A stretch of 64,000 bases of DNA, from contig NC_030387.2 in assembly GCF_001625215.2 (NCBI RefSeq), positions 36,045,606 through 36,109,605 of the forward strand. The letters run 5' to 3'. Shown here piece after piece: positions 25,300 through 63,426 of the stretch; within the stretch, counting starts at the first letter, position 1, and each line of letters starts with the position of its first letter. The notes below the pieces were generated by a model, which saw only the letters and a program-made list of their open reading frames with translations, was not told the DNA's origin and ran no database searches. The translations under genes and the position numbers were made by a program. This DNA is from Daucus carota subsp. sativus. Taxonomy: Eukaryota > Streptophyta > Magnoliopsida > Apiales > Apiaceae.

Positions 25300-25986
25300 T
25301 TAAAATAAAGCAGTAGGGGGTCCACCGCGTCCTTTACCACGAGGACTTGGACCTGAATCATCAACACTATCAGTCCAAACAAAATTCTGAATAGGAGGCG
25401 TTCCATGTCCTCCATGACTTGGACCTGAAGGGGGTGCAATACGTCCTTTACCAGCAAACTTCTGAATAGACGGAGGCTTTCTATTTCCTCCATGACTTGG
25501 ACCTGAAGGGGGCGCATCACGTCTTTTACCAGCAAACTTCTGAATTGAAGGAGGCGTTCCATGTCCTCCATGACTTGGACCTGAAGGGGGTGCATCACGT
25601 CCTTTACCAGCAAAATTCTGAATAGACGGAGGCGTTCCATGTCCTCCATGACTTGGACCTGAAGGGGGTGCATCACGTCCTTTACCAGCAAACTTCTGAA
25701 TCGAAGGAGGCGTTCCATGTCCTCCATGACTTGGACCTGAAGGGGGTGCATCACGTCCTTTATCAGCAAACTTCTGAATAGAAGGAGGCGTTCCATGTCC
25801 TCCATGGCTTGGACCTGAAGGGGGTGCATCACGTCTTTTACCAGCAAACTTCTGAATAGAAGGAGGCGTTCCATGTCCTCCATGACTTGGACCTGAAGGG
25901 GGTGCACCATTTGCTGCGTAGACGACAGAGATGATAATTATAGCTATTAAGAGAATGGAGCTAATATTTATTTTTGATCCACCCAT
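25300..25986 (-). CDS. Secreted tandem-repeat peptide precursor with SGPS (PIP/IDA-like) cores
   Basis: Predicted 228 residues from the Met at 25986. An upstream in-frame Met at 26031 lies so close to the TATA box (26049-26056) that it is unlikely to be in the mRNA. Residues 1-25 form a signal peptide (hydrophobic ISSILLIAIIIISVVYA). From residue 28 come six 26-residue units (28-183, 78 bp each at DNA level), each with APPSGPSHGGHGTPP, then SIQKF and a basic linker AGKGR or AGKRR. Unit 6 reads HGGNRK, unit 7 (184-) is degenerate, and the tail carries a last core, SGPSPRGKGRGG (211-222). SGPS followed by GxG resembles the PAMP-induced peptide (PIP/PIPL) core, and PPSGPS resembles the IDA/IDL core. 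Those hormones are cut from secreted precursors and sensed by leucine-rich-repeat receptor kinases. Family placement is my inference from motif; a proline/glycine-rich wall protein is the alternative. Confidence 0.8.
   Translation of the reverse strand: MGGSKINISSILLIAIIIISVVYAANGAPPSGPSHGGHGTPPSIQKFAGKRRDAPPSGPSHGGHGTPPSIQKFADKGRDAPPSGPSHGGHGTPPSIQKFAGKGRDAPPSGPSHGGHGTPPSIQNFAGKGRDAPPSGPSHGGHGTPPSIQKFAGKRRDAPPSGPSHGGNRKPPSIQKFAGKGRIAPPSGPSHGGHGTPPIQNFVWTDSVDDSGPSPRGKGRGGPPTALF
25381..25905 (-). repeat. 78-bp coding minisatellite
   Basis: Six complete 78-bp units (25905-25438) and part of a seventh encode the peptide repeats. Units 1-5 differ by only a few bases, while units 6 and 7 at the 3' end are more diverged. 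Because 78 is divisible by 3, another frame also stays open (25272-25910), but it is not a gene. Confidence 0.95.
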
Positions 25987-26036: not shown

Positions 26037-26560
26037 TTCTTACAAAAGCTTATATACAGGTAGTGTAGCAGTTTCTAATATCTATTAGCATTAATTCCTT
26101 TCATATAATATCAATGTAAAATCTTGTGGATCTTGTTATTATTAATGATATCTCATTAATTTTTAGTGTAGATTACACTATAAATAATTTATAATGTAAT
26201 TCTTTACAAAAAATTTATATACAGATATTGTCAGAGTTTCAAATATCTATTAGCATTATATCTTTTCATATAACAAGAATGCAAAATCCTGCGAATTTTG
26301 TTGTTATTAATGATATCTCATAATTTTTTAGTGTAGATTACACTATAAATATCTGTTTATAGTGTAAGCTACACTATAAATAGATATTTATATCGTTCTT
26401 TACAAAATCTTATATACATGGTTTTGGTAACAGTTTCAATATCCATTAGCATTGTATTTTTTCATATAATAAGAATGTAAAATTGTGTGAATTTTGTTGT
26501 TATTAATGATATCTCATATTTAGTGTAGATTGCACAATAAATATCTATTTATGTGACATG
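26037..26560 (-). promoter_or_regulatory. Triplicated core promoter of the repeat peptide gene
   Basis: Three tandem copies of a 165-195-bp unit lie directly upstream of the peptide gene (about 26037-26199, 26200-26395, 26396-26560). Read on the minus strand, each ends with a TATA-like element (TATATAAG at 26049-26056, TATATAAA at 26214-26221, TATATAAG at 26409-26416) followed by ttttgtaa. Each also has the phrases ctattagcatt, ttaatgatatctca and tagtgtaga. The nearest TATA sits about 65 bp before the chosen start codon. Confidence 0.8.
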
Positions 26561-30172: not shown

Positions 30173-32668
30173 TTATCTTGCATCATCTATCTTCAGTTGG
30201 GAGAAAACTTCAGATGCATCTGCATAGCTACTGTCAAGAACATCATCAATTCTTAGGTGCATTTCGTCTTCGTTGATTGTCAAGCTAGTGGAAGGTAATC
30301 GCTGAACAACAGGCAATGGCATCGCCCAGGAAACGTCTGTAGTGATGCTTTCCTCATGGGGCTTACATTGAAGTTGCAATGCATATTCCAAGTCCCAAAT
30401 TACATCAACCATACTGGGCCTATCCGCTCCTTCTTCCCTGAGACATTTTGCCGCGATTTCCCCAAATTTTCTTAAAGAATTAGGATTAATCTTTCCCACA
30501 AGCAAAGGATCAACTATCTTTTCAAGTTCCCCCTTCTGCTGCAAATATACACCCCAGTCAGCCAAATTGACTTGCTCCCGCGGAAGCAAATTATTTATAG
30601 CTGGCCTAGCAGAAAGCACTTCGAGAAGAACAACCCCAAAAGAGTAAACATCAGATTTTTGGGTTAACTGCATGCATCTAAAGTATTCAGGATCCAGATA
30701 ACCAAAGCTGCCTTTCACACCGGTGCTGATATGTGTTTGCTCGGGTAGACCAGACCTGGAAAGACCAAAATCAGATACTTTGGCTACAAAATCTTTGTCA
30801 AGCAATATGTTTGTTGACTTGACATCACGGTGTATGATTCCCCCACCCGAGCCCTCAGTGTGAAGGTAGTTCAGCCCCTTGGCTGCACCGATGCAAATAT
30901 CAAGCCTCTGATTCCAGGACAAGACAGGCATTGCACGTGATTTGGGATCGGTTCCTTTGTATAAATGATCTTGCAGTGTACCTTTCTCCATGAACTCGTA
31001 AACTAGTATCATCTCAGACATTTCATCACAATATCCAATTAAAGAAACAAGATGCCTATGTCGGATACTAGATAAGACCATGATTTCAGTCTGGAACTCC
31101 GGAAGACCTTGGCCATGTCCTGACTCACTTCTTTTTACAGCCACTTTGATGCCATTCCTAAGAGTTCCTTTATACACCTTCCCAAATCCCCCCTTACCAA
31201 TTATTGACTTGGAATCAAACTTGTTGGTTGCATACATAATTTCTGAGAAGGCCAACTTCAGCTCAAGATTCAGCGTCTGAAAGTTGGACTCATTTTTCAC
31301 AGCACTCTCAGTAAGCCCACTGTATGAATTTCCTCCATATAAATTCACCAATGGCCAATCCGACTTCTCAACTGCCTTCGCTTTCCTCCTCTTACGAATC
31401 ACGAAAATCACTAGCAAAACAAGTGCAAATGCCACCACTCCAACAACAGAACAAACTATAATAATTATCAAAAACTTCTTGCTTATCTTGTTTTCTCCTG
31501 AACTATCTCGGCTCTCATCATTCACCAATTCCATAATCTCGAGCCCATTCAAAAAGGCTGTTTGATTTTCTTCACGAGGACCAATAGAGATATTTATCCA
31601 ACCAAAAGTATCTGAATCTACCACAAAATCATTATAGAAAGGGGTTCTGACCTCGGAATTTTTGTCCCTAATCTCAGAACTAAACTTGCTAAAGATATAC
31701 AAGTTGAACTTATCTGAGTTTTCAGAGTCACTGAGAATATCACAGAAATGAACCCGCATAAAATGTTTCACATTTTTCGTCACATTAAACTGCCATGTTA
31801 TATTGAAGAAATTACTGGTCTTTTGGGGATCAATTTTCATTTCTTTCGCCGTCTGATAGACAGGATCAGGTGCACTATACTTAGTGGCTCCTCCTAGTGG
31901 ATAATTTGGCTTACTACCATAAGACCTAATATTCTTTGCAACTTCTTTATGATACAAAAAATTATCATCCGGTATCCAATTCCTCCACAGAGTATCATTA
32001 TCTGGGCTAAGTAACTCACCTCCAACATTAATTCTATAAACTGGACGTAAAATCTGAGTTAACAGATCATTGTAATCATCTTCGTCACTTCCTGACGGAG
32101 TCACATGAGGAGCTGAGCTTGGTATAAAATTTTCCGGAGCAAGAAATGTTTCAATTGCATTCACGAATGCAAAAGATGATTTATCAGGAGCAAAGATAAT
32201 TTCAAAAGTTCCAGAGTCTATAAAGAATATGAACTCTTCGATTACAGGTAATTTATCACTCTTATGGACTCTGAAATCTGACAACAAGGTATATCCAGAA
32301 GCTGAAACACTGAAATTAGAATCTAGGAGATTTCTTGCAGGAGACGAAAATGGATAGAAGTGAAGGCGTACCACGTAAGTGCCATTATTGACTAATGTAA
32401 GTTTGTACCTTGACAGGCTTGTAAAAACTTTTGCAGATTGATAAAGAGGCGGGATGGTGGCAGTTGATGTAGAGACCGCGCCATCTGAGCTGGAGTCTGC
32501 AATGAATTTCCGGCTGTTGAGCGTGGTGTCATTGTTTGAGCCACAGTTAATGAAGTGATTCTCTGGAGACGCGAAGTACTGTGACTGTACTAATAAGCAC
32601 TGCACGAGGAGGAGAGCAATAAACGCTCCTCCTGCGATGGAGGAGTTGAGAGAATTTGAGATATGCAT
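30173..32668 (-). CDS. CrRLK1L receptor-like kinase (malectin-like ectodomain)
   Basis: A single-exon protein of 831 residues, the usual length for Catharanthus roseus RLK1-like kinases (FERONIA/THESEUS group), closest in style to the At5g24010 type. A signal peptide covers about 1-29. A malectin-like extracellular region follows to about 395, with several NxS/T glycosylation sites and phrases typical of the family (INCGSNND, RVHFCD). The membrane helix is at about 397-422 (LIIIIVCSVVGVVAFALVLL) followed by a basic stop RKRRK. The kinase has GKGGFGKVYKG near 490, VAVKR, HRDVKSTN near 611 and DFGLS near 634, so it should be active. These proteins sit at the plasma membrane and sense wall integrity or RALF peptides; the ligand here is unknown. 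Intronless structure agrees with the family. Confidence 0.93.
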   Translation of the reverse strand: MHISNSLNSSIAGGAFIALLLVQCLLVQSQYFASPENHFINCGSNNDTTLNSRKFIADSSSDGAVSTSTATIPPLYQSAKVFTSLSRYKLTLVNNGTYVVRLHFYPFSSPARNLLDSNFSVSASGYTLLSDFRVHKSDKLPVIEEFIFFIDSGTFEIIFAPDKSSFAFVNAIETFLAPENFIPSSAPHVTPSGSDEDDYNDLLTQILRPVYRINVGGELLSPDNDTLWRNWIPDDNFLYHKEVAKNIRSYGSKPNYPLGGATKYSAPDPVYQTAKEMKIDPQKTSNFFNITWQFNVTKNVKHFMRVHFCDILSDSENSDKFNLYIFSKFSSEIRDKNSEVRTPFYNDFVVDSDTFGWINISIGPREENQTAFLNGLEIMELVNDESRDSSGENKISKKFLIIIIVCSVVGVVAFALVLLVIFVIRKRRKAKAVEKSDWPLVNLYGGNSYSGLTESAVKNESNFQTLNLELKLAFSEIMYATNKFDSKSIIGKGGFGKVYKGTLRNGIKVAVKRSESGHGQGLPEFQTEIMVLSSIRHRHLVSLIGYCDEMSEMILVYEFMEKGTLQDHLYKGTDPKSRAMPVLSWNQRLDICIGAAKGLNYLHTEGSGGGIIHRDVKSTNILLDKDFVAKVSDFGLSRSGLPEQTHISTGVKGSFGYLDPEYFRCMQLTQKSDVYSFGVVLLEVLSARPAINNLLPREQVNLADWGVYLQQKGELEKIVDPLLVGKINPNSLRKFGEIAAKCLREEGADRPSMVDVIWDLEYALQLQCKPHEESITTDVSWAMPLPVVQRLPSTSLTINEDEMHLRIDDVLDSSYADASEVFSQLKIDDAR

Positions 32669-33130: not shown

Positions 33131-36100
33131 TCAAGTGTTGATTGTGTCCAAGACGTTGCGAGTCTTACACATAGCTTCCAGAGGCTCGGCTTTAGGCATC
33201 GTAAGTCCTTTTCCTTCAGCTAGATCAATTAGCTCATCACTAACTCGCTCCCATTCAAAGCATTGAATCAACGAGGCTAAAACCAAGCCAACCACACGAT
33301 GAGCTAGTCCACTTCCTGGGCAAGACCTCCTGCCCATTCCAAACGGCATCAATTTGTGTGTTTCAACTTCTATGCCTTCAAATCTCTCTGGTTTAAAGCT
33401 TGTAGGGTCATCCCACACCTTGGGATCCCTGTGAATTGACCAGGAATTAACCAAAACAAGTGTGCCAGCTGGAATATCGTAGCCACTAACCTTGCAGTCA
33501 GCTGATGCCTTGTGTGGCAGTAACAAGGGTGTAGCTGGGAATAACCGGAAACTCTCCAGGATGATATTATGGAGATACGGCAACTTAGATAGATCCGACT
33601 CTTCAACAAGGCGGTCTTGACCAATTACAATATCTATCTCGTCTCTAGCTTTCTTCAACACATGTGGATGATTCAGTAGAAGAGACATTGCCCATTCAAT
33701 TGTGACACCAGATGTATCCGATCCAGCAAATATCAAAACCTATTGCAACAAATAATATAGTGAGAAGAAGAAAATTCAATTCAATCAAGTAGCCCGTAAT
33801 TAGACACATATGGTTCTCCATGCACAATATTACTATGCTTAAAATTCTTTCACTGGGATACATTTATGATTTAACCCTTGCGCACAATGAACTAAAATAT
33901 ATGACATGTATCATTATACTCATGTCTATTCTCCGGAATTTCAAAACTACGTAGGCTCTAGAGAAGAATTCCCACACAAAAAGAAAGCAATGTCACCTCC
34001 AAGTTTTATATATTGTAGTTTAATACTTAGTATGATTTTAATTATTACAGATATATAATTTCTCTTAAAAAAAGGAAACTTAATATGAAACAGAGCTTGC
34101 TAAACCTACGATCTGCAGTGGAACAAGTCCCAGCAAGACAGGTGGCAGCTCTGCTAGCAGAATGCTTCACAAAAAAGGGGGCGTTTGGATGATAGGTGGG
34201 AATGAGAATTTTAAGAGCGTGGAAGGAATAGGTTCCCCTTCCATACAATAAATTGCTAATCCAAACATCAATAGGTTTGAGGTTCTGATTCCCGTTAACG
34301 AGGCTCATTAATCATGAACCAAACACCCCTAAAATGTAAACAAGTTCAACTCAGTCTTAAGCTCTTCACAATCCTGGACAAGCCAACCGAAAGCAAAAAA
34401 TTTTACCCCAGCACTGAAACCATAGTTACATGGATCGTGGATCGATTCGGTACGCGATACGAATTCGGGTACGCAGGACGTGAGTATGGATGAATCGGGT
34501 ACGAGGAGCCGTGAATCGGGTTCGCGGGTCGAATTAAGGATCCCGTAATTTTTATATTAAAAAAATATAAAAATCTTATTTTGGCAAAATTCATATTAAA
34601 AGGTGTAGTTTAGAGTAATAAATAAAAAATAATAAGAATTGTTTCTTATGTGAAACGAGGTGCATAATAAAATAAATTTTTATCCCTTTTGATCTTTAAA
34701 CGGGTTGACTGGATGGTAAAAGTTATTATATTTATTTATCATTTTTTTATAAATTAAATTTTCAGCACATATTTTTATTTATAAAATTAAAAAAAAAAAC
34801 AAAGCGTCAAAAAATAACGGAGAGAGTGCTGAAACTTTCCAACGTGGGCTCTTGGACAAGCAAATGCATTAGGTGGGCCTAGAAATGAATGCAGGGGTTA
34901 CACATTAAATAGACACACACAAAACTTATACATATATACAGTATATTATTATTATCCAGCACGATCTACCATAACTTTCACGAGTTATCACATTGGTATC
35001 TGTGTTGTCTTCTCCCCCACTTCGTTTTCTCCCCCGCTTCATCTTCTCCACAAACCACACATCACTTTCAGCTGCAAACAGTCATGTATACATATATCCA
35101 CATATATACATATCACAGGTCAGGTAAAACACCACTACTCGCCTCTTTCTTCTTAATTTCATCCTCGTTTTATAGTCGCCGGTAAGTGATCAGAGTTCGT
35201 CGGAAATGACGAACTGGAACGCGATCCCGAGTGTTCCGGGTCGACTTCGACCCGCGTTCCGGAACGACCGTACCAGTTCACGGTTCCCTAGGTCGACCCG
35301 CGAACCGGGTAACTATGACTGAAACTTTCTGAGAAACTGACATAACTCATCTTCTATTTGAAAGACAGGCAAGGTTCAGGCAGGACCTTCCTACCCTTAT
35401 ACTCACACTCACGTGCGCTGAGTCACAGACCGACATAATTCATCTTTTATTTGAAAGACAAGCAAGGTTCAGGCAGGAGCCTCCTACCCTTATTATACTC
35501 ACACCCATGTGCGCTAAGTCACAAGCCTTCAAGGCTCGATCCCCTGATACCAAGAGAAGACTAAAAAAAACTATTTTACAATACCACGGAATAGGGTTTC
35601 AATTACACAGTTGATGTACCTCTAAAATATGAAATAGTTTCTGATAAAGGTTGATGTATTTTTGACATTCTATTATCTATCTATCTACCTTGGTCAAGTT
35701 TAATTATAAGTTTTTGTTCATAAAACTGCCCTTCCCACCACAATCCCGGCTGCTCTAACCTGCAGAAACTAATTTAGCTCTACCGGACTTGGACAACATC
35801 AAGATTAAACAATTCTACTATTGTGTGATTTATTCTTGTTTTCCGATCTTATACCTCTCACCGGTTGGCTATTTAAAAGATTAGTATACGTACCGTGATG
35901 AGACCTTTAATAATGTTATCACTGTAATAATTAGGTTGTGATTGCTGAAGAGAAAGCAAATGATCAACCATAGAGTTCCTACTGTCACCATTTCTATGCT
36001 CTTCAATTATCCCTCGCAAAAGCTTATCCATTTTCTTAAACAAGAATAAAGCACGTTTTTGAAAATTCTTGTAATCAATCCATTCCAATATTGGCAGGAA

Positions 36101-36769
36101 ATCACCAGGATATGAAGCTCCGGCCATAGACAACACCTCCTCAATTATATCCCGCACGTGCTTAGCCTCCTCATCATCATCCACAATTTCTCCATAGTAT
36201 CTCTTTCCCGCAATCATTCTCATGATGACGTTAAATGATAGATCAGTCAAATGGGGTTTCAGCACTACTTTTCCAAACTCATGTCGCGTGTTTTGAGATA
36301 ATCTATGTAGCAACTGATTAACCTCATCACGTCGAATTGACAGAAAAGAGTCCAGCCGACTTGTGGAAAATATTTCAAGAGCAGAGAGACGACGGAGGTT
36401 CCTCCAGTGATCACCATAGGAGGCACCAGCCATGGTGGACCAGTTGTAGCCAATGGTCTCCCCCAAGGTGAGGCGGGGACGATCGGCTAAAACAACATCG
36501 TTTTTGGTGAAACATTCCTCAACTGCAGCTGGTGAAGACACGACAACAACTAGGAAAGAACCGAAACGAAGAGAAAAGACAGGGCCGATGGTTTTGGAGA
36601 GGCTGTCCAAGGTTCTGTGAAGTGGTTCCTTAATGAGGTGAAGGTGGCCTATTATCGGGAGTTTTGGAAAGGGACTAGGAGGTAGATGCTTTGATTTTTT
36701 GAATAATTTGGAAACAAAGAATATGAGCAGGAATGAGAGGGAGACATAAAATAACATATATGGATCCAT
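33131..36769 (-). CDS. Cytochrome P450, CYP81-like, two exons (complete copy)
   Basis: Exon 1 is 36769-35894 (292 residues) and exon 2 is 33739-33131 (202 residues). The phase-0 intron has donor ACG/GTACGT and acceptor AG/GTTTTG, giving 494 residues, normal for the family. It has an N-terminal membrane anchor (about 4-22) and the proline hinge [19 protein letters not shown] typical of CYP81. Further motifs are the I-helix AGSDTS (297-302), ExxR as ESFR (354-357), PERF (409-412) and the heme loop [10 protein letters not shown] (425-434, Cys432). CYP81 enzymes are ER monooxygenases that hydroxylate phenylpropanoids such as isoflavonoids and lignans or indole compounds; the substrate cannot be read here. 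The 2154-bp intron contains a hAT-like element (34421-35317) and a MITE. Two further first exons lie upstream without a second exon of their own. Confidence 0.93.
34176..34330. mobile_element. Short hAT-like MITE in the P450 intron
   Basis: Ends aggggggcgtttgg and the imperfect inverse ccaaacacccct, about 155 bp, no ORF. Confidence 0.55.
34421..35317. mobile_element. hAT-like non-autonomous element in the P450 intron, perfect 8-bp target duplication
   Basis: It starts catagttac and ends with the exact inverse gtaactatg. The flanking 8-mers are both actgaaac (34413-34420 and 35318-35325). Both subterminal zones are GC-rich and full of short repeats such as cgggtac, gaatcggg, gggtcga and cgaccc, unlike the AT-rich middle. 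The 897-bp element has no transposase frame. A CT-rich stretch at about 35005-35080 could be captured leader sequence. Confidence 0.8.
35338..35526. repeat. 94-bp tandem duplication in the P450 intron
   Basis: The phrases gacataactcatctt, caaggttcaggcagga, cctacccttat and gcgctgagtcaca occur twice in order, at 35338-35431 and 35432-35526. Confidence 0.85.
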
Positions 36770-37677
36770 GGTTTGAGTCTGGTGTTTGAAACTGTATTGC
36801 TACTTAGAAATCATATACTATACGCTCCACCTACTTGTATAAGATAAGACTTTCTTGGTCATGGATATCAGGGAGAGGGCTTGTTCCGTGTACCTCTATA
36901 TTGAAAATTCTTTTAAAAACTTAGGTATGTACGTATTTAGGAGCATCAACCCCAATTGATCATAAGGTAAAAGGCAGTAAAATCGGAATTGTGGCTCCTG
37001 TTCAATCAATCATGCTATGAATATATAGTCTGGTCCCTCCTTTTCTCTTACAAGTAATTTTTGTTTCTCTGGGAACTAATAGATCAGGTTCAGATTTTCA
37101 GATAAACTCCCGTTCTAAAACTTCAATAATACTAATTACTAGTTTACACATTACACCAAAGTGACCAAACTTTTGAGAAATCATATAAATCAACTATTTT
37201 CTGAAAGACAACAAGAATATTGTTGGGGCCGAGAGAATGGTATTGTTAGGGACCTCCTACCCTTAAACACACGTGCCTCCACGGAGTTACAAACCCTCAA
37301 GACACAGCCTCTTGTTACCAAGAAGATGACAGAACAGGGGAAACTGTTTTACAGTTTGCATGATATGATATAAGTGAGCAATAACTACCTTGTTAATGTA
37401 ACTCAGAAGTCTGAAACAGTTTCTGATGAGAGTTGATGTATTTTCAATACTCCCTTGTTTATTTACCTCGCGTTTATTTTAACATCTTCTGTTCATAAAC
37501 ATGACCCTCCCCCCAGTAGTCCCGGCGGCTCTATCTAGTTGATACTAATTTAGCTCTCCAGGACTCAGCATCTCAGTTAGACCAGTCTACTATTGTGTAG
37601 TGTTGGTTTCTAGAGTTTAAAAATAACAATATCTGTACTTCTCATTAATTGGATAATATGGGAATTAGTATACGTAC
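36770..37677. other. Promoter of the first P450 unit and residual intron of the second
   Basis: About 37190-37640 is homologous to intron sequence beside the other two donors (phrases ttgttaccaaga, gttgatgta, cccggc.gctct). No exon-2-like coding sequence. Confidence 0.6.
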
Positions 37678-38553
37678 CGTGATGAGACCTTTAATAATGA
37701 TATCACTGTAATAACTAGGCTGTGATTTCTGAAGAGAAAGCAAATGATCAACCATGGAGTTTCTACTCTCACCATTTCTATGCTCTTCAATTATCCCTTG
37801 CAAAAGCTTATCCATTTTCTTAAACAAATATAAGGCACGCGTTTGAAAATTCCTGTAATCAATCCATCTCAAGATTGGCAGGAAATCACCAGGATATGAA
37901 GCTCCGGCCATAGACAAAACCTCCTCAATAATATCTCGCACGTGCTTAGCCTCCTCCTCATCATCCACATCTTGCCCGTAGTATCGTTTCCCTGCAATCA
38001 TCCTCATTATGACGTTAAATGATAGATCATTCAAGTGGGTTTTCAGCACAACTTTTCCAAACTCGTATCGCGTTTTTTGAGACACTCTGTGTAGCAGCTG
38101 ATTCACCTCATCACGCCGAATTGACAGAAACGAGTCCAGCCGACTTGTGGAAAATATTTCAAGAGCAGAGAGACGACGGAGGTTCCTCCAGTGATCACCA
38201 TAGGAGGCACCTGCCATGGTGGACCAGTTGTAGCCGAGGTACTTCCCTATGGTAAGGCGGGGACGACCTGCTAAAACAACATCGTTTTTGGTGAAGCACT
38301 CCTGAACTGCGGCTGGTGAAGACACGACAATGACTAGGAAAGAACCAAAACGAAGAGAAAAGACGGGGCCAATAGTTTTAGAGAGGCTGTCCAAGGTTCT
38401 GTGAAGTGGTTCCTTAATGAGGTGAAGGTGGCCTATTATTGGAAGCTTTGGAAAGGGACTGGGAGGTAAGTGCATTGATTTTTTGAACAATTTGGAAACA
38501 AAGAATATGAGCAGGAATGAGAGGGAGGCATAAAGTAACATATATGGATCCAT
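37678..38553 (-). CDS. CYP81-like first exon, second copy, no second exon of its own
   Basis: 876 bp fully open, 292 residues, nearly the same as exon 1 of the complete gene, with the same start MDPYML, hinge [19 protein letters not shown] and end IIKGLIT. The donor ACG/GTACGTATACTAAT is identical to that of the complete copy. Between its donor (37677) and the next first exon (36769) I see no sequence encoding the I-helix, ExxR or heme loop. Its leader (caaacaccagactcaaacc before ATG) is also conserved. Either it is spliced to the exon 2 at 33739-33131, 3.9 kb downstream and in the same phase, or it is a truncated duplicate that has not yet decayed. Confidence 0.75.
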
Positions 38554-39572
38554 GGTTTGAGTCTGGTGTTTGGAAATGTAATGAATAATGCTAGATATGA
38601 AGTCTTACTTTACATGCTCTACTTGTATAAGATAAGAGTTTCTTGGTCATGGACTAATTGATTCTTAAATGGATGTCAGGCCAAAGAGTACTGGGTTATC
38701 TCAGGGACGGAGCTCTTTATGAGTACATCAATTTTGTATACAAAAATTTATACATAAATCATAACTAATAATTATGTAAAAGACAGTGAAACCAGACTAT
38801 ATGGTTTGGTCCACTTGTTTTAACCAGTAACCTTTGTTGCTTAGTGAACTAATGAACTATGTCTAAATTTCTGGATCAACTCTGGTTCGTGCCTCAATTG
38901 AGCCACAACTCTAAAGGCTCAACCCCTTGTTACCAAGAGAAGAGGGGCATCGTTTCTACAATACCGCGGATAAGATACAAATGAGGAATTATGTAGTTAA
39001 TGTACCTCTGAAATCTTGCTATTAAGGGTTGATGCGTGACATTTGTTTGTTTATCTACCTTGGTTAGGTTTTTAAGAGTCTTATGTCCATAAACCCGCCC
39101 TCCCCACCATGGCCCCATCAATCCTGGCTGCTCTAACCTTTCTGACGTTCAGTATTTAGCTCAACTGGACGTGAACATCATCTAAATTTAACCATTCTAT
39201 ACAGTAACATAAGACGATACTTGATCATTGATCCATACAAGGACGTCGAGCCAAAGATGATACTGTATCAGGGACAGAGCTATCTATAGGAATACATTAA
39301 ATTATACACATAAACACATACTTGTTTCTAAATAGACTGGGATCATTTTTGTTGTAGGGGGAGATCCGCTCTAACAATTCCGTCACCATCTACCAACACG
39401 ACTGGGAAGGTTTCAAAAAAGGTAGGCATACGACGTACAAAAAGTTCACGCCCTTTTAATGTTAATTGCTATGAATTCAACAATTTTTTTTTACATATAT
39501 ACTTCTATCAAGCAAATAACTCTGGAATTAGTACAAATTAGCTAGAGAAAAAGTGTGGATTAGTAAACTTAC
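38554..39572. other. Promoter of the second P450 unit and residual intron of the third
   Basis: About 38885-39200 is homologous to the intron segments at 35520-35860 and 37290-37600. No exon-2-like coding sequence on the minus strand. Confidence 0.6.
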
Positions 39573-40445
39573 CACCATGAGACCTTTAATTATGAAGTCA
39601 CTGTAAGAATCAGGCTGTGATTTCTGAAGCGAAAGCAAATGTCCAACCATGGAGTTTCTACTCTCACCATTTCTATGCTCCTCAATCACCCCTTGCAAAA
39701 TTCCATCCATTTCCTTGCTCAGCACCGCAGCACGTTTCTCATAATTCTTGTAATCAATCCATTTCAGAAATGGCAAGAAATCGCCAGGATATGAACTTAC
39801 TACAGACAGCACCTCCTCAATTATTCTTCGCACTTGTTTAGCCTTCTCTTGATCATCCACCACTTCTCCGAAGTACCGCTTACCTGCAATCATCCTCATC
39901 ACAATATTGAATGACAAAACATTCAAATTTGGTTTCAGCACTACTTTCTTAAACCCCTGCCCCGCATTTTGAGACAATGCGAGTAGCAGGTGATTAACCT
40001 CATCTCTGCGTATCGACAGAAATGAGTTGAGTCGGCTCGTGGAAAAGATCTCAAGGGAGGCGATACGACGAAGGTTTCGCCAATGGTCACCGTAGGAAGC
40101 ACCAGCCATAGTGGACCAGTTATAAGCCATGTACTTTCCCATGGTCATGCGGGGGCGGTTGGCTAAAACGATGTCGTTCTTGGTGAAGCATTCCTCGACA
40201 GCGGCTGGTGAAGACACGACAACGACGAGGCTGGAGCCGAATTGGAGAGACATGACGGGGCCAAAGGCTTTGGACAGGGTGTCTAAGGATCGATGAAGCG
40301 GTGACTTGATGAGGTGAAGGTGGCCTATTATTGGGAGCTTGGGGAAGGGACTTGGAGGCAAATTCATGGAGGTTCTGAACAACTTGGAAACAAAGATTAT
40401 GAGCAGCAGTGAGATGAAGGCATGAAATAACGTTATTTGTTCCAT
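39573..40445 (-). CDS. CYP81-like first exon, third copy, no second exon of its own
   Basis: 873 bp fully open, 291 residues, more diverged from the other two (start MEQITLFHAFISLLLI, end IIKGLMV), with the same hinge and the conserved [20 protein letters not shown] segment. The donor is GTG/GTAAGTTTACTAAT, again phase 0. No second exon lies between here and the next first exon at 38553. If it is used, it would have to splice 5.8 kb to the exon at 33739-33131. Intron sequence just after the donor is shared with the other two units, showing that exon 1 plus flanking intron was the duplicated unit. Confidence 0.72.
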
Positions 40446-46156: not shown

Positions 46157-46250
46157 ATTGTTACCAATATTTTTAGTTGCACGACTCCTGACTTTTTCTG
46201 TGCAACTGTTATGAATCTTCCTCCAGAGTCCAGGCTACAAATTAATCTGA

Positions 46251-49751: not shown

Positions 49752-51929
49752 ATGGCAATAGCTCTCAGTCTCTTATGTTTCTTGTGCCTTGTAGCCGTAA
49801 ATAGTTCTCTTTATTTTCAGGTATCTCATTTTAGTCGTCAGAGAACCGACATAATTAATTATCAAGGAGATGCTGTGGGAGCAGGTGAACAGGCTGAGTT
49901 GATCAACAAGGACAATCTCAATACACGCAAGACGCGTGTTGGCCGAGTCATTTATGCTGATCCTGTCCAGATATGGGATTCTGACTCGGGGAAACTTACA
50001 GATTTTACTTCTCATTTCACTTTTACCATTGACACCCAATCCAGAGCCAAATATGGTCATGGTCAGGGGCGGATCTAGGAAGAGGCACGGGGGTACACGT
50101 GCCCCCCCTAAAATTTTTTTTTACATTTTTTCACCATTCTAAATTTTACAAAATTATAGAAGTGCCCCCCCCAAATTTTGAAAATATATAGGTGTTTTCC
50201 TGAAAATTTGCTTGGTGCCCCCCTAAGATTATGGGTCTAGATCCGCCCCTGGTCATGGTATTGCATTCTTTCTGGCTCCTGTTGGCTACCAGATCCCTCC
50301 CAACTCAGTACCTGGATACTTAGGTCTCTTTAACGCGACTAGACCTGTTCCTTCTGGAAATCAGATTGTTGAGGTCGAGTTTGACTCTTACGTCAATGAA
50401 GACTGGGATCCTCCGTATGAGCATGTGGGAATCAACATTGACTCAATTATCTCAGCTCAGACCGCTCCTTGGGACGCTTCATTGCATAGTGGAGATACTG
50501 CTGATGTGTGGGTTATGTATAATGCTATTACCAAAAATTTGTCAGTCTTTTGGTCCTACAAGCAAAACCCCAGTTTTCAGATGAATTCCAGTCTATCAAA
50601 TTGACCTCAAGGATGTTCTACCTGAGGTCACTAGTATCGGATTTTCAGCCTCTATAGGTTATATGGCTCAGCAAACTTTTCTAAAATCTTGGGAGTTCAG
50701 TTCAACTTTATCTGAAAAAGATTCAAGTAACAGAGACAAGAAGGTTATATTTATAGTGTCCACAACAGTGTGCACCGTGGTGTTGCTCTCTCTAACTGTA
50801 TCACTCGCTATAGTTTGTAGGCGAAGACGGACTACTAGAAAAGCAGCAGAAGCAGCCCAAATGACATCAATCAGTGATGACCTTGAAAGAGCAGGGCCCA
50901 GAAAATTTTCCTACCAGGCTCTTGCTGTTGCTACTTACAATTTCTCAGATGAGCGAAAGCTAGGCGAGGGAGGTTTTGGCTGTGTCTACAAGGGATATCT
51001 CATAGACCTTGATCTACCAATTGCTGTTAAAAAGATATCAAGGAGCTCCAGACAAGGTAAGAAAGAGTATGTAACCGAGGTCAAGATTATTAGTATGTTG
51101 AGGCATCGCAATTTAGTCCAGCTCATAGGTTGGTGCCATGAAAAGAGTCAGTTCCTCCTTGCTTATGAATTCATGCCAAACCGAAGCCTTGATGTTCACC
51201 TATTTGGCGACAGGAGTTCTCTTGTTTGGCCAGTTAGATTCAAGATAACAATAGGACTTGCATCTGCTTTACTCTATCTTCACGAGGATTGTGAGCAGTG
51301 TGTACGTGGTGCATCGAGACATCAAGTCCAGCAATATAATGCTGGACTCAAACTTTAATACCAAGCTTGGAGATTTTGGCTTAGCTAAAGTTATGGACCA
51401 CGAGCTCGGTCACCAGACATCCGTGTTGGCTGGAACTTTCGGTTACATGGCGCCAGAATATGTATACAGCGGCAGAGCTAGTAAAGAGTCTGATATTTAT
51501 AGCTTTGGTGTAGTTCTATTGGAAATTGTTACAGGAAGAAGGTCAGGGGGATAGACTGCATGTTGGCCAATCTGAAAAGGGACTGGTCGAGTGGGTTTGG
51601 GATCAGTATGGAAGTGCCAGCTTCTTTCAGCTGTGGATGGAAGATTAAATTCTGAGTTTGACGCGGCACAAGCTGAGTGTTTGATCATTGTTGGACTATG
51701 GTGTGCTCACCCTGACCCCAATTTGAGGCCATTGATCAGGCAGGCAATTGAAGTGCTTAACTTTGAGGTGGCAATGCCAAGTCTTCCCACAACTATGCCG
51801 CTTTCTGTTTATCATGCACCCTTTAGTACCGTGACCGCGGTTAGCTCTTCACCAGCAGCAAGCTCAACAAGCGCGGCCAGCTCTAGTCAGGCTACTATTT
51901 CTTACACAAGCAAGAATTTTGGGCGTTAA
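49752..51929 (+). pseudogene. Broken L-type lectin receptor kinase, paralogue of the gene at 46331
   Basis: Start MAIALSLLCFLCLV at 49752 and end at 51929, alignable along its length to the intact neighbour. The lesions I can see are: a 188-bp hAT MITE in the lectin domain (50064-50251); a 5-nt deletion near 50598 (agtct/atcaaattg where the intact gene has five extra bases); a 4-nt insertion near 51303 just before HRD; a 1-nt gain in the G-run near 51546; and a 1-nt loss near 51619. The kinase motifs [19 protein letters not shown] and APEY remain readable in different frames. No single frame could give a full receptor; a truncated secreted lectin or a short kinase piece would be the most it could make. 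Confidence 0.92.
50064..50251. mobile_element. hAT MITE inserted in the lectin kinase pseudogene
   Basis: The ends caggggcggatctag and ctagatccgcccctg are exact inverses. The 8-mer gtcatggt flanks it on both sides (50056-50063, 50252-50259). Interior C-runs (gtgccccccctaa type) recur inverted. 188 bp, non-coding. Confidence 0.93.
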
Positions 51930-62367: not shown

Positions 62368-63426
62368 ACTGGTAGGAATCGAGAAAAGCGTTGGAAGGTG
62401 CTGGAGTGATCAAGTGGGAAAAATTCAATGAACTATTCCTCGAGAAGTATTTCCCGAGGTATGTCCGAGATCGAATGGAGATCAAATTTTTGGAGCTAAA
62501 GCAAGGGAATTTGAGTGTAGCTGAGTATGAGGCCAAATTCACTGAACTATCCAGGTTTGTGCCCAAATATGTGGATTCAGAAATAAAACGAGCTAAACGA
62601 TTTCAACAAGGATTAAAGCAATGGATTCGAAGTAGAGTTGCAATGTTTGAGCTAAGGGAATACCCCACAATGGTGTAGAAAGCTATGATAATAGAAGGTG
62701 AGAGTGATTTCTTAGTAAAAGAAAAGGATGATAAGAAGAGGAAAGCAGAGGTAACAGAAGGAACCGCATCTCAGAGGAGTTTCCAACCTCGTTTCAACCC
62801 AACGCCAGAATTTCAGCCAGGAAGGCGAGAGCCTGCTAAAAGGGCAAAAACGATAAGATTCCAACCTAATAACCGTTTCCAGGATCCAAATCAGTCAAGG
62901 CAAATAAATGCACCGGCACCAGATTGTAAGAGATGTGGAAAGAAGCATTTGGGTTTTTGTGCACCGACACATATAGTGTGTTTTAAATGCAACCAGGATG
63001 GTCACTACGCCAATACATGTCCAAATGTCAAGCCCAAATCTCTTGTAAACTGCTTTAAGTGCGGAAACTATGGACATTATGCCAAGGACTGCCGAGCTGA
63101 TGCTTCACGAGGTAATACCCAGCAAGCTACAAGAGCACCATCTACAAATCAACCCAAAGCCCGAACATTCTACATGTCAATGAAGAGTTGGAGTGCAAGA
63201 TGCTGATGTGATTGCAGGTATGCTTCATATAAATTCTGCTAGTGCCAAGGTGTTAATTGATTCAGGAGCTATGAAGTCTTTCATATCTTTAGACTTTCTT
63301 CATAAAGCGCATTGTGAGGTTCAATCATTAGATCAAACCTTAGCAATAGGGTTAGCAAATCAAGATCGTGTTCATTCTTCGTATTTTAATATTTGGACAA
63401 GCAAAAATGGAAATGTGCCATCATAA

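What the first reader, a model, noticed from the sequence alone, without database searches (positions are those of the whole stretch)
25300..25986. Multi-copy secreted precursor with eight SGPS peptide cores
A signal peptide is followed by six near-identical 26-residue units, a seventh degenerate unit and a terminal core. Each carries SGPS in the context APPSGPSHGGHG or DSGPSPRGKGR. PIP/PIPL and IDA/IDL hormones usually have one, sometimes two, such cores per precursor. Eight in series would be an amplified phytocytokine precursor able to release many copies, and the His/Gly-rich core differs from both known consensus forms. The sequence shows the repeats directly; the hormone identity is inferred.
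Basis: partly seen in the sequence, partly recalled or inferred. Interest (0 to 1): 0.88.

Follow-up and report, generated by a model that had tools for sequence, protein, structure and literature searches.

The report
Eight-core secreted plant peptide precursor
A plant gene encodes a secreted-looking protein made almost entirely of repeated copies of a short peptide related to plant immune hormones called PIPs; several copies per precursor is common in this gene group, but this one has more copies than any relative seen here and has lost the usual end of the peptide.

Summary
Window 25986-25300 (minus strand) is an intact 228-codon gene: hydrophobic leader, seven 26-residue units with SGPS cores, and a terminal core DDSGPSPRGKGR. 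Correction: unit 6, not 7, has the altered core.

It most likely descends from PIP2-type PAMP-induced secreted peptide precursors. Leader (P0001, P0004) and period and tail (also Heracleum P0005) match proteins with serial SGPS/GxGH-type cores. Fused gene models in Heracleum and Olea join such a precursor to relatives of the window's two next upstream genes.

"One, sometimes two cores" is too low for eudicots: 91 of 125 retrieved proteins have three or more SGPS, maximum six; the window has eight. All eight window cores lack the GxGH-type ending that 123 of the 125 have at least once, and the Arg and variable region after the leader are gone. The repeats read PPSGPSHGGH, with IDA-like spacing.

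Verdict: a derived variant of a known kind, with a homogenised array. Expression, processing, activity and receptor are untested.

The parts
25300..25986 (-). Complete coding sequence, 228 aa plus stop
25906..25986 (-). Leader (putative signal peptide) MGGSKINISSILLIAIIIISVVYAANG
   Evidence: Best local scores among 125 retrieved proteins are P0001 (78) and P0004 (60), next 36; 0 of 2000 shuffles reach either. No signal-peptide predictor available.
25828..25905 (-). Unit 1, APPSGPSHGGHGTPPSIQKFAGKRRD
25750..25827 (-). Unit 2, APPSGPSHGGHGTPPSIQKFADKGRD
25672..25749 (-). Unit 3, APPSGPSHGGHGTPPSIQKFAGKGRD
25594..25671 (-). Unit 4, APPSGPSHGGHGTPPSIQNFAGKGRD
25516..25593 (-). Unit 5, APPSGPSHGGHGTPPSIQKFAGKRRD
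25438..25515 (-). Unit 6, core changed: APPSGPSHGGNRKPPSIQKFAGKGRI
25360..25437 (-). Unit 7, intact core with a linker like that of the relatives: APPSGPSHGGHGTPPIQNFVWTDSVD
25303..25359 (-). Terminal core and tail DSGPSPRGKGRGGPPTALF, similar to the tails of P0004 and P0005
26051..26056 (-). Nearest TATA-type element, about 70 nt upstream of the ATG (inferred promoter)

Best explanation
The gene is a lineage-specific, expanded descendant of a PIP2-type multi-core peptide precursor that still makes peptide signals. From the sequences compared here: relatives carry three or four units of about 26 residues with SGPS-type cores ending mostly in GxGH; in the window a modified unit, lacking two residues of that end and carrying basic residues (GK[GR]RD) in the linker, occurs in seven near-identical or similar copies, while the terminal unit keeps the older form except for its final His, now Arg. 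Inferred: the modified unit was amplified in front of the old end; the protein enters the secretory pathway, prolines of PPSGPS are hydroxylated, subtilase-type proteases cut near the basic linkers, and up to seven copies of a peptide around APPSGPSHGGH plus one PIP1-like DDSGPSPRGKGR are released into the apoplast and sensed by an LRR receptor kinase of the RLK7/HAESA/CEPR group.
For: Homology: the window protein alone finds P0001 at E 2.1e-8 and P0004 at 1.2e-2. Leader: scores 78 (P0001) and 60 (P0004) against 36 for the next best of 125 retrieved proteins; 0 of 2000 shuffles reach either. End after unit 7's core: scores 72, 67, 65 against P0004, P0005, P0001, 0 of 2000 shuffles each. Period: P0004 26,26,26; P0005 26,26; P0001 25,26; window 26 six times, then 24. 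Neighbourhood: 2 of 125 proteins hit the window outside the gene, both as models fused to other sequence: P0005 to the P450 exon at 33337-33158 (85% over 60 aa) and P0037 (Olea, 4 cores by the looser pattern) to the malectin-like receptor kinase at 30676-30500 (68% over 59 aa), the two next upstream genes on the same strand among ORFs of 130 aa or more. Bridges: unnamed 3-4 core precursors with LGG[IV]K linkers come in at E 1.6e-4 to 2.5e-3 with the first profile (P0006-P0009). Constraint: core changes in units 1-5 are 4 of 4 synonymous where 29% is expected (p 0.007).
Against: None of the eight cores has GxGH, which is described for all Arabidopsis PIP/PIPLs (PMC4526919, passages) and, as GxG[HN] after SGPS, occurs at least once in 123 of 125 retrieved proteins. 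The Arg after the leader and the variable region are absent. The receptor-facing end may therefore be lost. The tail alone separates less well than the leader: with 45 residues P0005, P0004, P0001 score 84, 82, 78, but P0095, P0090 and P0002 follow at 74, 70, 69. P0001 and P0004 were found by similarity to the window, so their top rank is not blind. Named PIP2 proteins are reached only through profiles that contain the window protein. Near-identity of units can reflect recent expansion or gene conversion; the constraint test rests on 8 changes. No transcript, peptide or activity evidence.
Confidence: 0.55

Rival explanations
1. A decaying PIP2 paralogue: the GxGH end is lost in every core and the minisatellite drifts and expands without a signalling role.
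For: GxGH absent in 8 of 8 cores; Arg and variable region lost; terminal His replaced; unit 6 core changed.
Against: Frame intact over 228 codons; core changes in units 1-5 all synonymous, 4 of 4; leader well kept.
Confidence: 0.25
2. A structural or metal-binding proline/glycine/histidine-rich wall protein with no hormone function.
For: Repetitive, Pro-, Gly- and His-rich, secreted-looking; some retrieved proteins are labelled glycine-rich protein (P0044, P0083, P0122).
Against: No wall-protein Pfam match at E 1 or better; the retrieved relatives are mostly PIP-type precursors with SGPS...GxG[HN], including those three labelled glycine-rich.
Confidence: 0.08
3. A multi-copy IDA/IDL-like precursor by descent.
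For: PPSGPSHGGH has the spacing, S to last residue, of IDA PIPPSAPSKRHN (PMC4627355, passage); P0002 (Nicotiana sylvestris) and P0003 carry PPSGPSHG cores in series and were the second and third hits of the window protein alone, E 1.1e-3 and 1.5e-3.
Against: No [RK][RK]HN; leader, linker, period and neighbourhood point to PIP-type precursors; P0002 and P0003 differ in leader and linker by inspection.
Confidence: 0.05

Closest known systems
P0001, P0004 (source tag lgn, organism not given) and P0005 (hypothetical protein POM88_039341, Heracleum sosnowskyi)
   Same: Unit of about 26 residues and tail; leader in P0001 and P0004 (the P0005 model lacks a leader); SGP cores in series; P0005 gene model joined to a P450 exon like the window's
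   Different: Two or three exact SGPS plus one variant core each, ends mostly GxGH; Arg and variable region before the array in P0001 and P0004; units not homogenised
Multi-core PAMP-induced secreted peptide 2 precursors of eudicots (e.g. P0023 Hibiscus trionum, 6 SGPS; P0034 Vigna unguiculata)
   Same: Leader plus serial SGPS cores separated by short linkers
   Different: GxG[HN] end kept; linker LGG[IVM]K in 108 of 125 retrieved proteins; at most 6 SGPS in 125
Arabidopsis PIP1/PIP2/PIP3/PIPL1
   Same: SGPS core; the terminal core SGPSPRGKG resembles AtPIP1 RLASGPSPRGRGH (sequence as printed in PMC10667265, passage)
   Different: One or two cores, C-terminal GxGH (PMC4526919, passages)
Pea CEP/PIP hybrid precursors PsCEP20, 22, 23 and MtPIP8
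   Same: Several SGP-type cores in one precursor (PMC9739355, passages)
   Different: Mixed CEP and PIP domains, one or two PIP-like in the pea proteins
IDA/IDL
   Same: PPS[A/G]PS register
   Different: [RK][RK]HN end (PMC4526919, passages); one core as a rule (recalled)

Membership tests
PIP/PIPL precursors | SGPS core | tested here: met
   8 occurrences
PIP/PIPL precursors | GxGH at the end of the core | tested here: not met
   0 of 8 cores; six repeats end HGGH, unit 6 HGGN, terminal core GKGR
PIP/PIPL precursors | N-terminal signal peptide | tested here: inconclusive
   Hydrophobic leader matching P0001/P0004 leaders; no predictor available
PIP/PIPL precursors | Conserved Arg after the leader | tested here: not met
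   Absent by sequence and by a rough pattern that 104 of 125 retrieved proteins match
PIP/PIPL precursors | Variable region between leader and cores | tested here: not met
   Leader runs straight into unit 1
PIP/PIPL precursors | Homology to named family members | tested here: inconclusive
   Direct only to unnamed multi-core relatives (P0001); named PIP2 proteins reached at E 0.25-0.78 or by a profile that already held one
PIP/PIPL precursors | Pathogen or PAMP induction, RLK7 dependence | not testable with these tools
   No expression or binding data available
IDA/IDL | Core PPS[AG]PS followed by [RK][RK]HN | tested here: not met
   PPSGPS present, followed by HGGH
IDA/IDL | HAESA/HSL2 dependence | not testable with these tools
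   Needs an experiment
CEP | SPG(I/V)GH end | tested here: not met
   Not in the sequence
Structural wall protein (PRP, GRP, HRGP) | Match to a described repeat family | tested here: not met
   Pfam at E 1 or better: only PGG, E 0.074, below its cut-off

The most novel reading that the evidence does not exclude
A PIP precursor has changed ligand class: by losing two residues from the GxGH end and gaining PP before SGPS, its amplified units took on the IDA register (PPSGPSxxxH), so that one gene now releases many IDA-like peptides and one PIP-like peptide and could act through HAESA/HSL receptors as well as RLK7, with dose set by minisatellite copy number that may differ between individuals.
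Probability: 0.1. Interest if true: 0.8.

Novelty: new variant of a known kind. Interest (0 to 1): 0.42.

Why it matters
It suggests that SGP-type plant peptide precursors can gain copies and change the receptor-facing end of the peptide in nearly all copies together, through spread of one modified unit. If the peptides are active, the gene is a natural test of which residues decide between RLK7 and HAESA-type receptors, and of whether core number sets signal dose. It also shows that PIP-type precursors with three or more cores are frequent in public eudicot protein sets, beyond the one or two described for Arabidopsis.

Tried and rejected
Searches of the window's own genome for paralogues did not complete each time (genome search busy), so paralogue number and source species are unknown. 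Pfam scans of P0001-P0004 found nothing useful (two hits for P0003, both below their cut-offs). Rfam found nothing in the window at gathering scores. Paper searches with no result: the Apiaceae search (0 papers) and the PPSGPS/IDA-like search (0 papers); one search was rejected for a two-letter term. Passages of PMC9191895, PMC11756074, PMC10515272 and PMC4526923 gave nothing decisive. A wall-protein reading and an IDA-by-descent reading were rejected for the reasons given under rivals. A first pattern let GGH pass as GxGH and counted 7 for the window; the strict pattern gives 0 and is the one used. No structure prediction was run.

Full report
Observation. The minus strand of 25986-25300 encodes 228 residues without interruption. 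After a 27-residue hydrophobic leader come seven units of 26 residues and a terminal segment DSGPSPRGKGRGGPPTALF. SGPS occurs eight times. TRF reports the array with score 923, the highest of its 27 rows. Units 1-5 are 94.9-98.7% identical as DNA, unit 6 is 88.5-91.0% identical to them. Six of the seven units carry APPSGPSHGGHGTPP; unit 6 reads APPSGPSHGGNRKPP, and unit 7 has a different linker. ATG 25986 and an upstream in-frame ATG 26031 are both possible starts; a TATA element at 26056 favours the former (inference).

Relatives. The protein alone finds four proteins at E 10 or better: P0001 (2.1e-8), P0002 (1.1e-3), P0003 (1.5e-3), P0004 (1.2e-2); the tool scored the 7993 candidates sharing most words. 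P0001 and P0004 share the leader (INISSILLI in P0001, IDISSILLI in P0004) and carry serial PIP-like cores. A profile of P0004, P0001 and the window protein adds P0005 of Heracleum sosnowskyi (Apiaceae) at 7.4e-25, four unnamed multi-core precursors at 1.6e-4 to 2.5e-3 (P0006-P0009), and weaker hits, among them proteins named PAMP-induced secreted peptide 2 at 0.25-0.78. A profile of 13 sequences, including one named PIP2, finds 387 proteins at E 0.001 or better, of which the tool lists 120. Both profiles contain the window protein, so I rest its descent on the direct hit, the leader, the unit, the tail and the neighbourhood.

Tests of descent. Among all 125 retrieved proteins (P0001-P0125) the leader scores best against P0001 (78) and P0004 (60), next 36; 0 of 2000 shuffles reach either. 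P0001 and P0004 were themselves found by similarity to the window, so the ranking is not blind; the shuffles are the test. The end from PPIQNF on scores 72, 67 and 65 against P0004, P0005 and P0001, 0 of 2000 shuffles each; but the last 45 residues rank P0005 (84), P0004 (82), P0001 (78) only a little above P0095 (74), P0090 (70) and P0002 (69), so the tail alone is weak. The core-to-core distance is 26 in P0004 (three times) and P0005 (twice), 25 and 26 in P0001. In the unit alignment repeats 1-7 lack two residues near the GxGH end that most relatives' units have, units 1-6 have two more in the linker, and unit 7 keeps a relative-like linker (IQNFVW...VD against AQKFNWAGID), which suggests that the modified unit was amplified in front of an older end (inference).

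Neighbourhood. Of 125 proteins, two hit the window outside the gene at E 0.001: P0005, whose gene model begins with a P450 exon 85% identical to 33337-33158, and P0037 (Olea, named CEP16-like), whose model contains a kinase fragment 68% identical to 30676-30500. These are the next two upstream genes on the same strand among ORFs of 130 aa or more: a malectin-like receptor kinase (30176-32668) and a P450 (33134-33736). Both belong to large families, so this is supporting, not conclusive, evidence for conserved position.

How unusual. SGPS counts in the 125 retrieved proteins: 1 in 9, 2 in 25, 3 in 62, 4 in 24, 5 in 3, 6 in 2; so 91 of 125 have three or more. The 125 are what the three searches returned, not all 387; they include P0002 and P0003, which are probably not PIP-type; and queries with several cores and the length limits favour multi-core proteins, so this is no estimate of the family at large. 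Eight is above the maximum seen. In print, Arabidopsis has three precursors with two cores and eight with one (PMC4154866 and PMC4526919, passages); wheat showed no multi-domain PIP (PMC9532867, passages); pea has CEP/PIP hybrids (PMC9739355, passages). PMC10704477 maps motifs in 128 PIP members of 23 species (section 22 and passages); its figures are not held, so multi-core members may be shown there. In the listings and the passages that I read I did not see a description of PIP precursors with three or more SGPS cores; I read none of those papers whole.

What is odd. The strict pattern SGPS-(1-3)-GxG[HN] occurs at least once in 123 of 125 retrieved proteins and not at all in the window; the other two without it are P0002 and P0003. 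The repeats read PPSGPSHGGH. IDA is PIPPSAPSKRHN (PMC4627355, passage); counted from the S of S[AG]PS both end at the eighth residue, while retrieved cores run 9 (174) or 10 (169) residues to H or N, with 1 of 11 and 1 of 12. Six were counted as 8: three are P0002's, and three (P0044, P0056, P0104) are GGNGH cores of length 10 cut short by the pattern. P0002 of Nicotiana sylvestris has PPSGPSHGGH in three copies but another leader and linker, so its resemblance is probably convergent (inference).

Constraint. In units 1-5, against the unit consensus, 4 of 4 changes in the 48-nt core are synonymous (29% expected, p 0.007) and 0 of 4 in the linker; with unit 6 included, 6 of 9 and 0 of 6. This suggests protection of the core but rests on few, possibly non-independent, events.

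Mechanism. Shown: architecture, similarity to PIP-type precursors, absence of GxGH, homogenised array. Inferred from PIP/IDA biology: secretion, proline hydroxylation, cleavage near basic linkers, perception by LRR receptor kinases. PIP1 acts through RLK7 (PMC4154866, passages). Whether the changed end still binds RLK7, has moved to another receptor, or binds none is open. I put descent at about 0.9, peptide activity at about 0.55-0.6, and the joint reading at 0.55.

Filing. Because GxGH was tested and not met, I do not file the gene as a canonical PIP; it is a derived variant of PIP2-type precursors.

Noticed in passing
26040-26560: Three tandem, diverged copies (about 165-196 bp) of the region just upstream of the gene, each with a TTATATACA element; possibly a duplicated promoter segment.
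   Followed up: partly
33134-40445 (-): Three tandem P450 first exons (second and third 91% and 73% identical to the first) but only one second exon found by tblastn at E 1e-5 (33736-33134), so copies may be incomplete.
   Followed up: partly
50663-51539 (+): A second kinase downstream of the lectin receptor kinase at 46211 has its kinase match split over two frames near 51300 (an intron or a frameshift); described only.
   Followed up: no
P0002 and P0003 (proteins, not in the window): Serial PPSGPSHG precursors with other leaders: P0002 (Nicotiana sylvestris) three copies, P0003 (source tag ena) five related copies, some in the context LPKN[VI]PIPPSGP; P0003 bears a precomputed PF27884 label that the Pfam copy used here did not report.
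   Followed up: partly
P0014, P0023, P0030, P0042, P0072 (proteins): PIP2-type precursors with five or six SGPS cores; P0023 (Hibiscus trionum) is named PAMP-induced secreted peptide 2.
   Followed up: partly
62685-63203 (+): CCHC zinc-knuckle ORF, probably a retroelement gag fragment.
   Followed up: no
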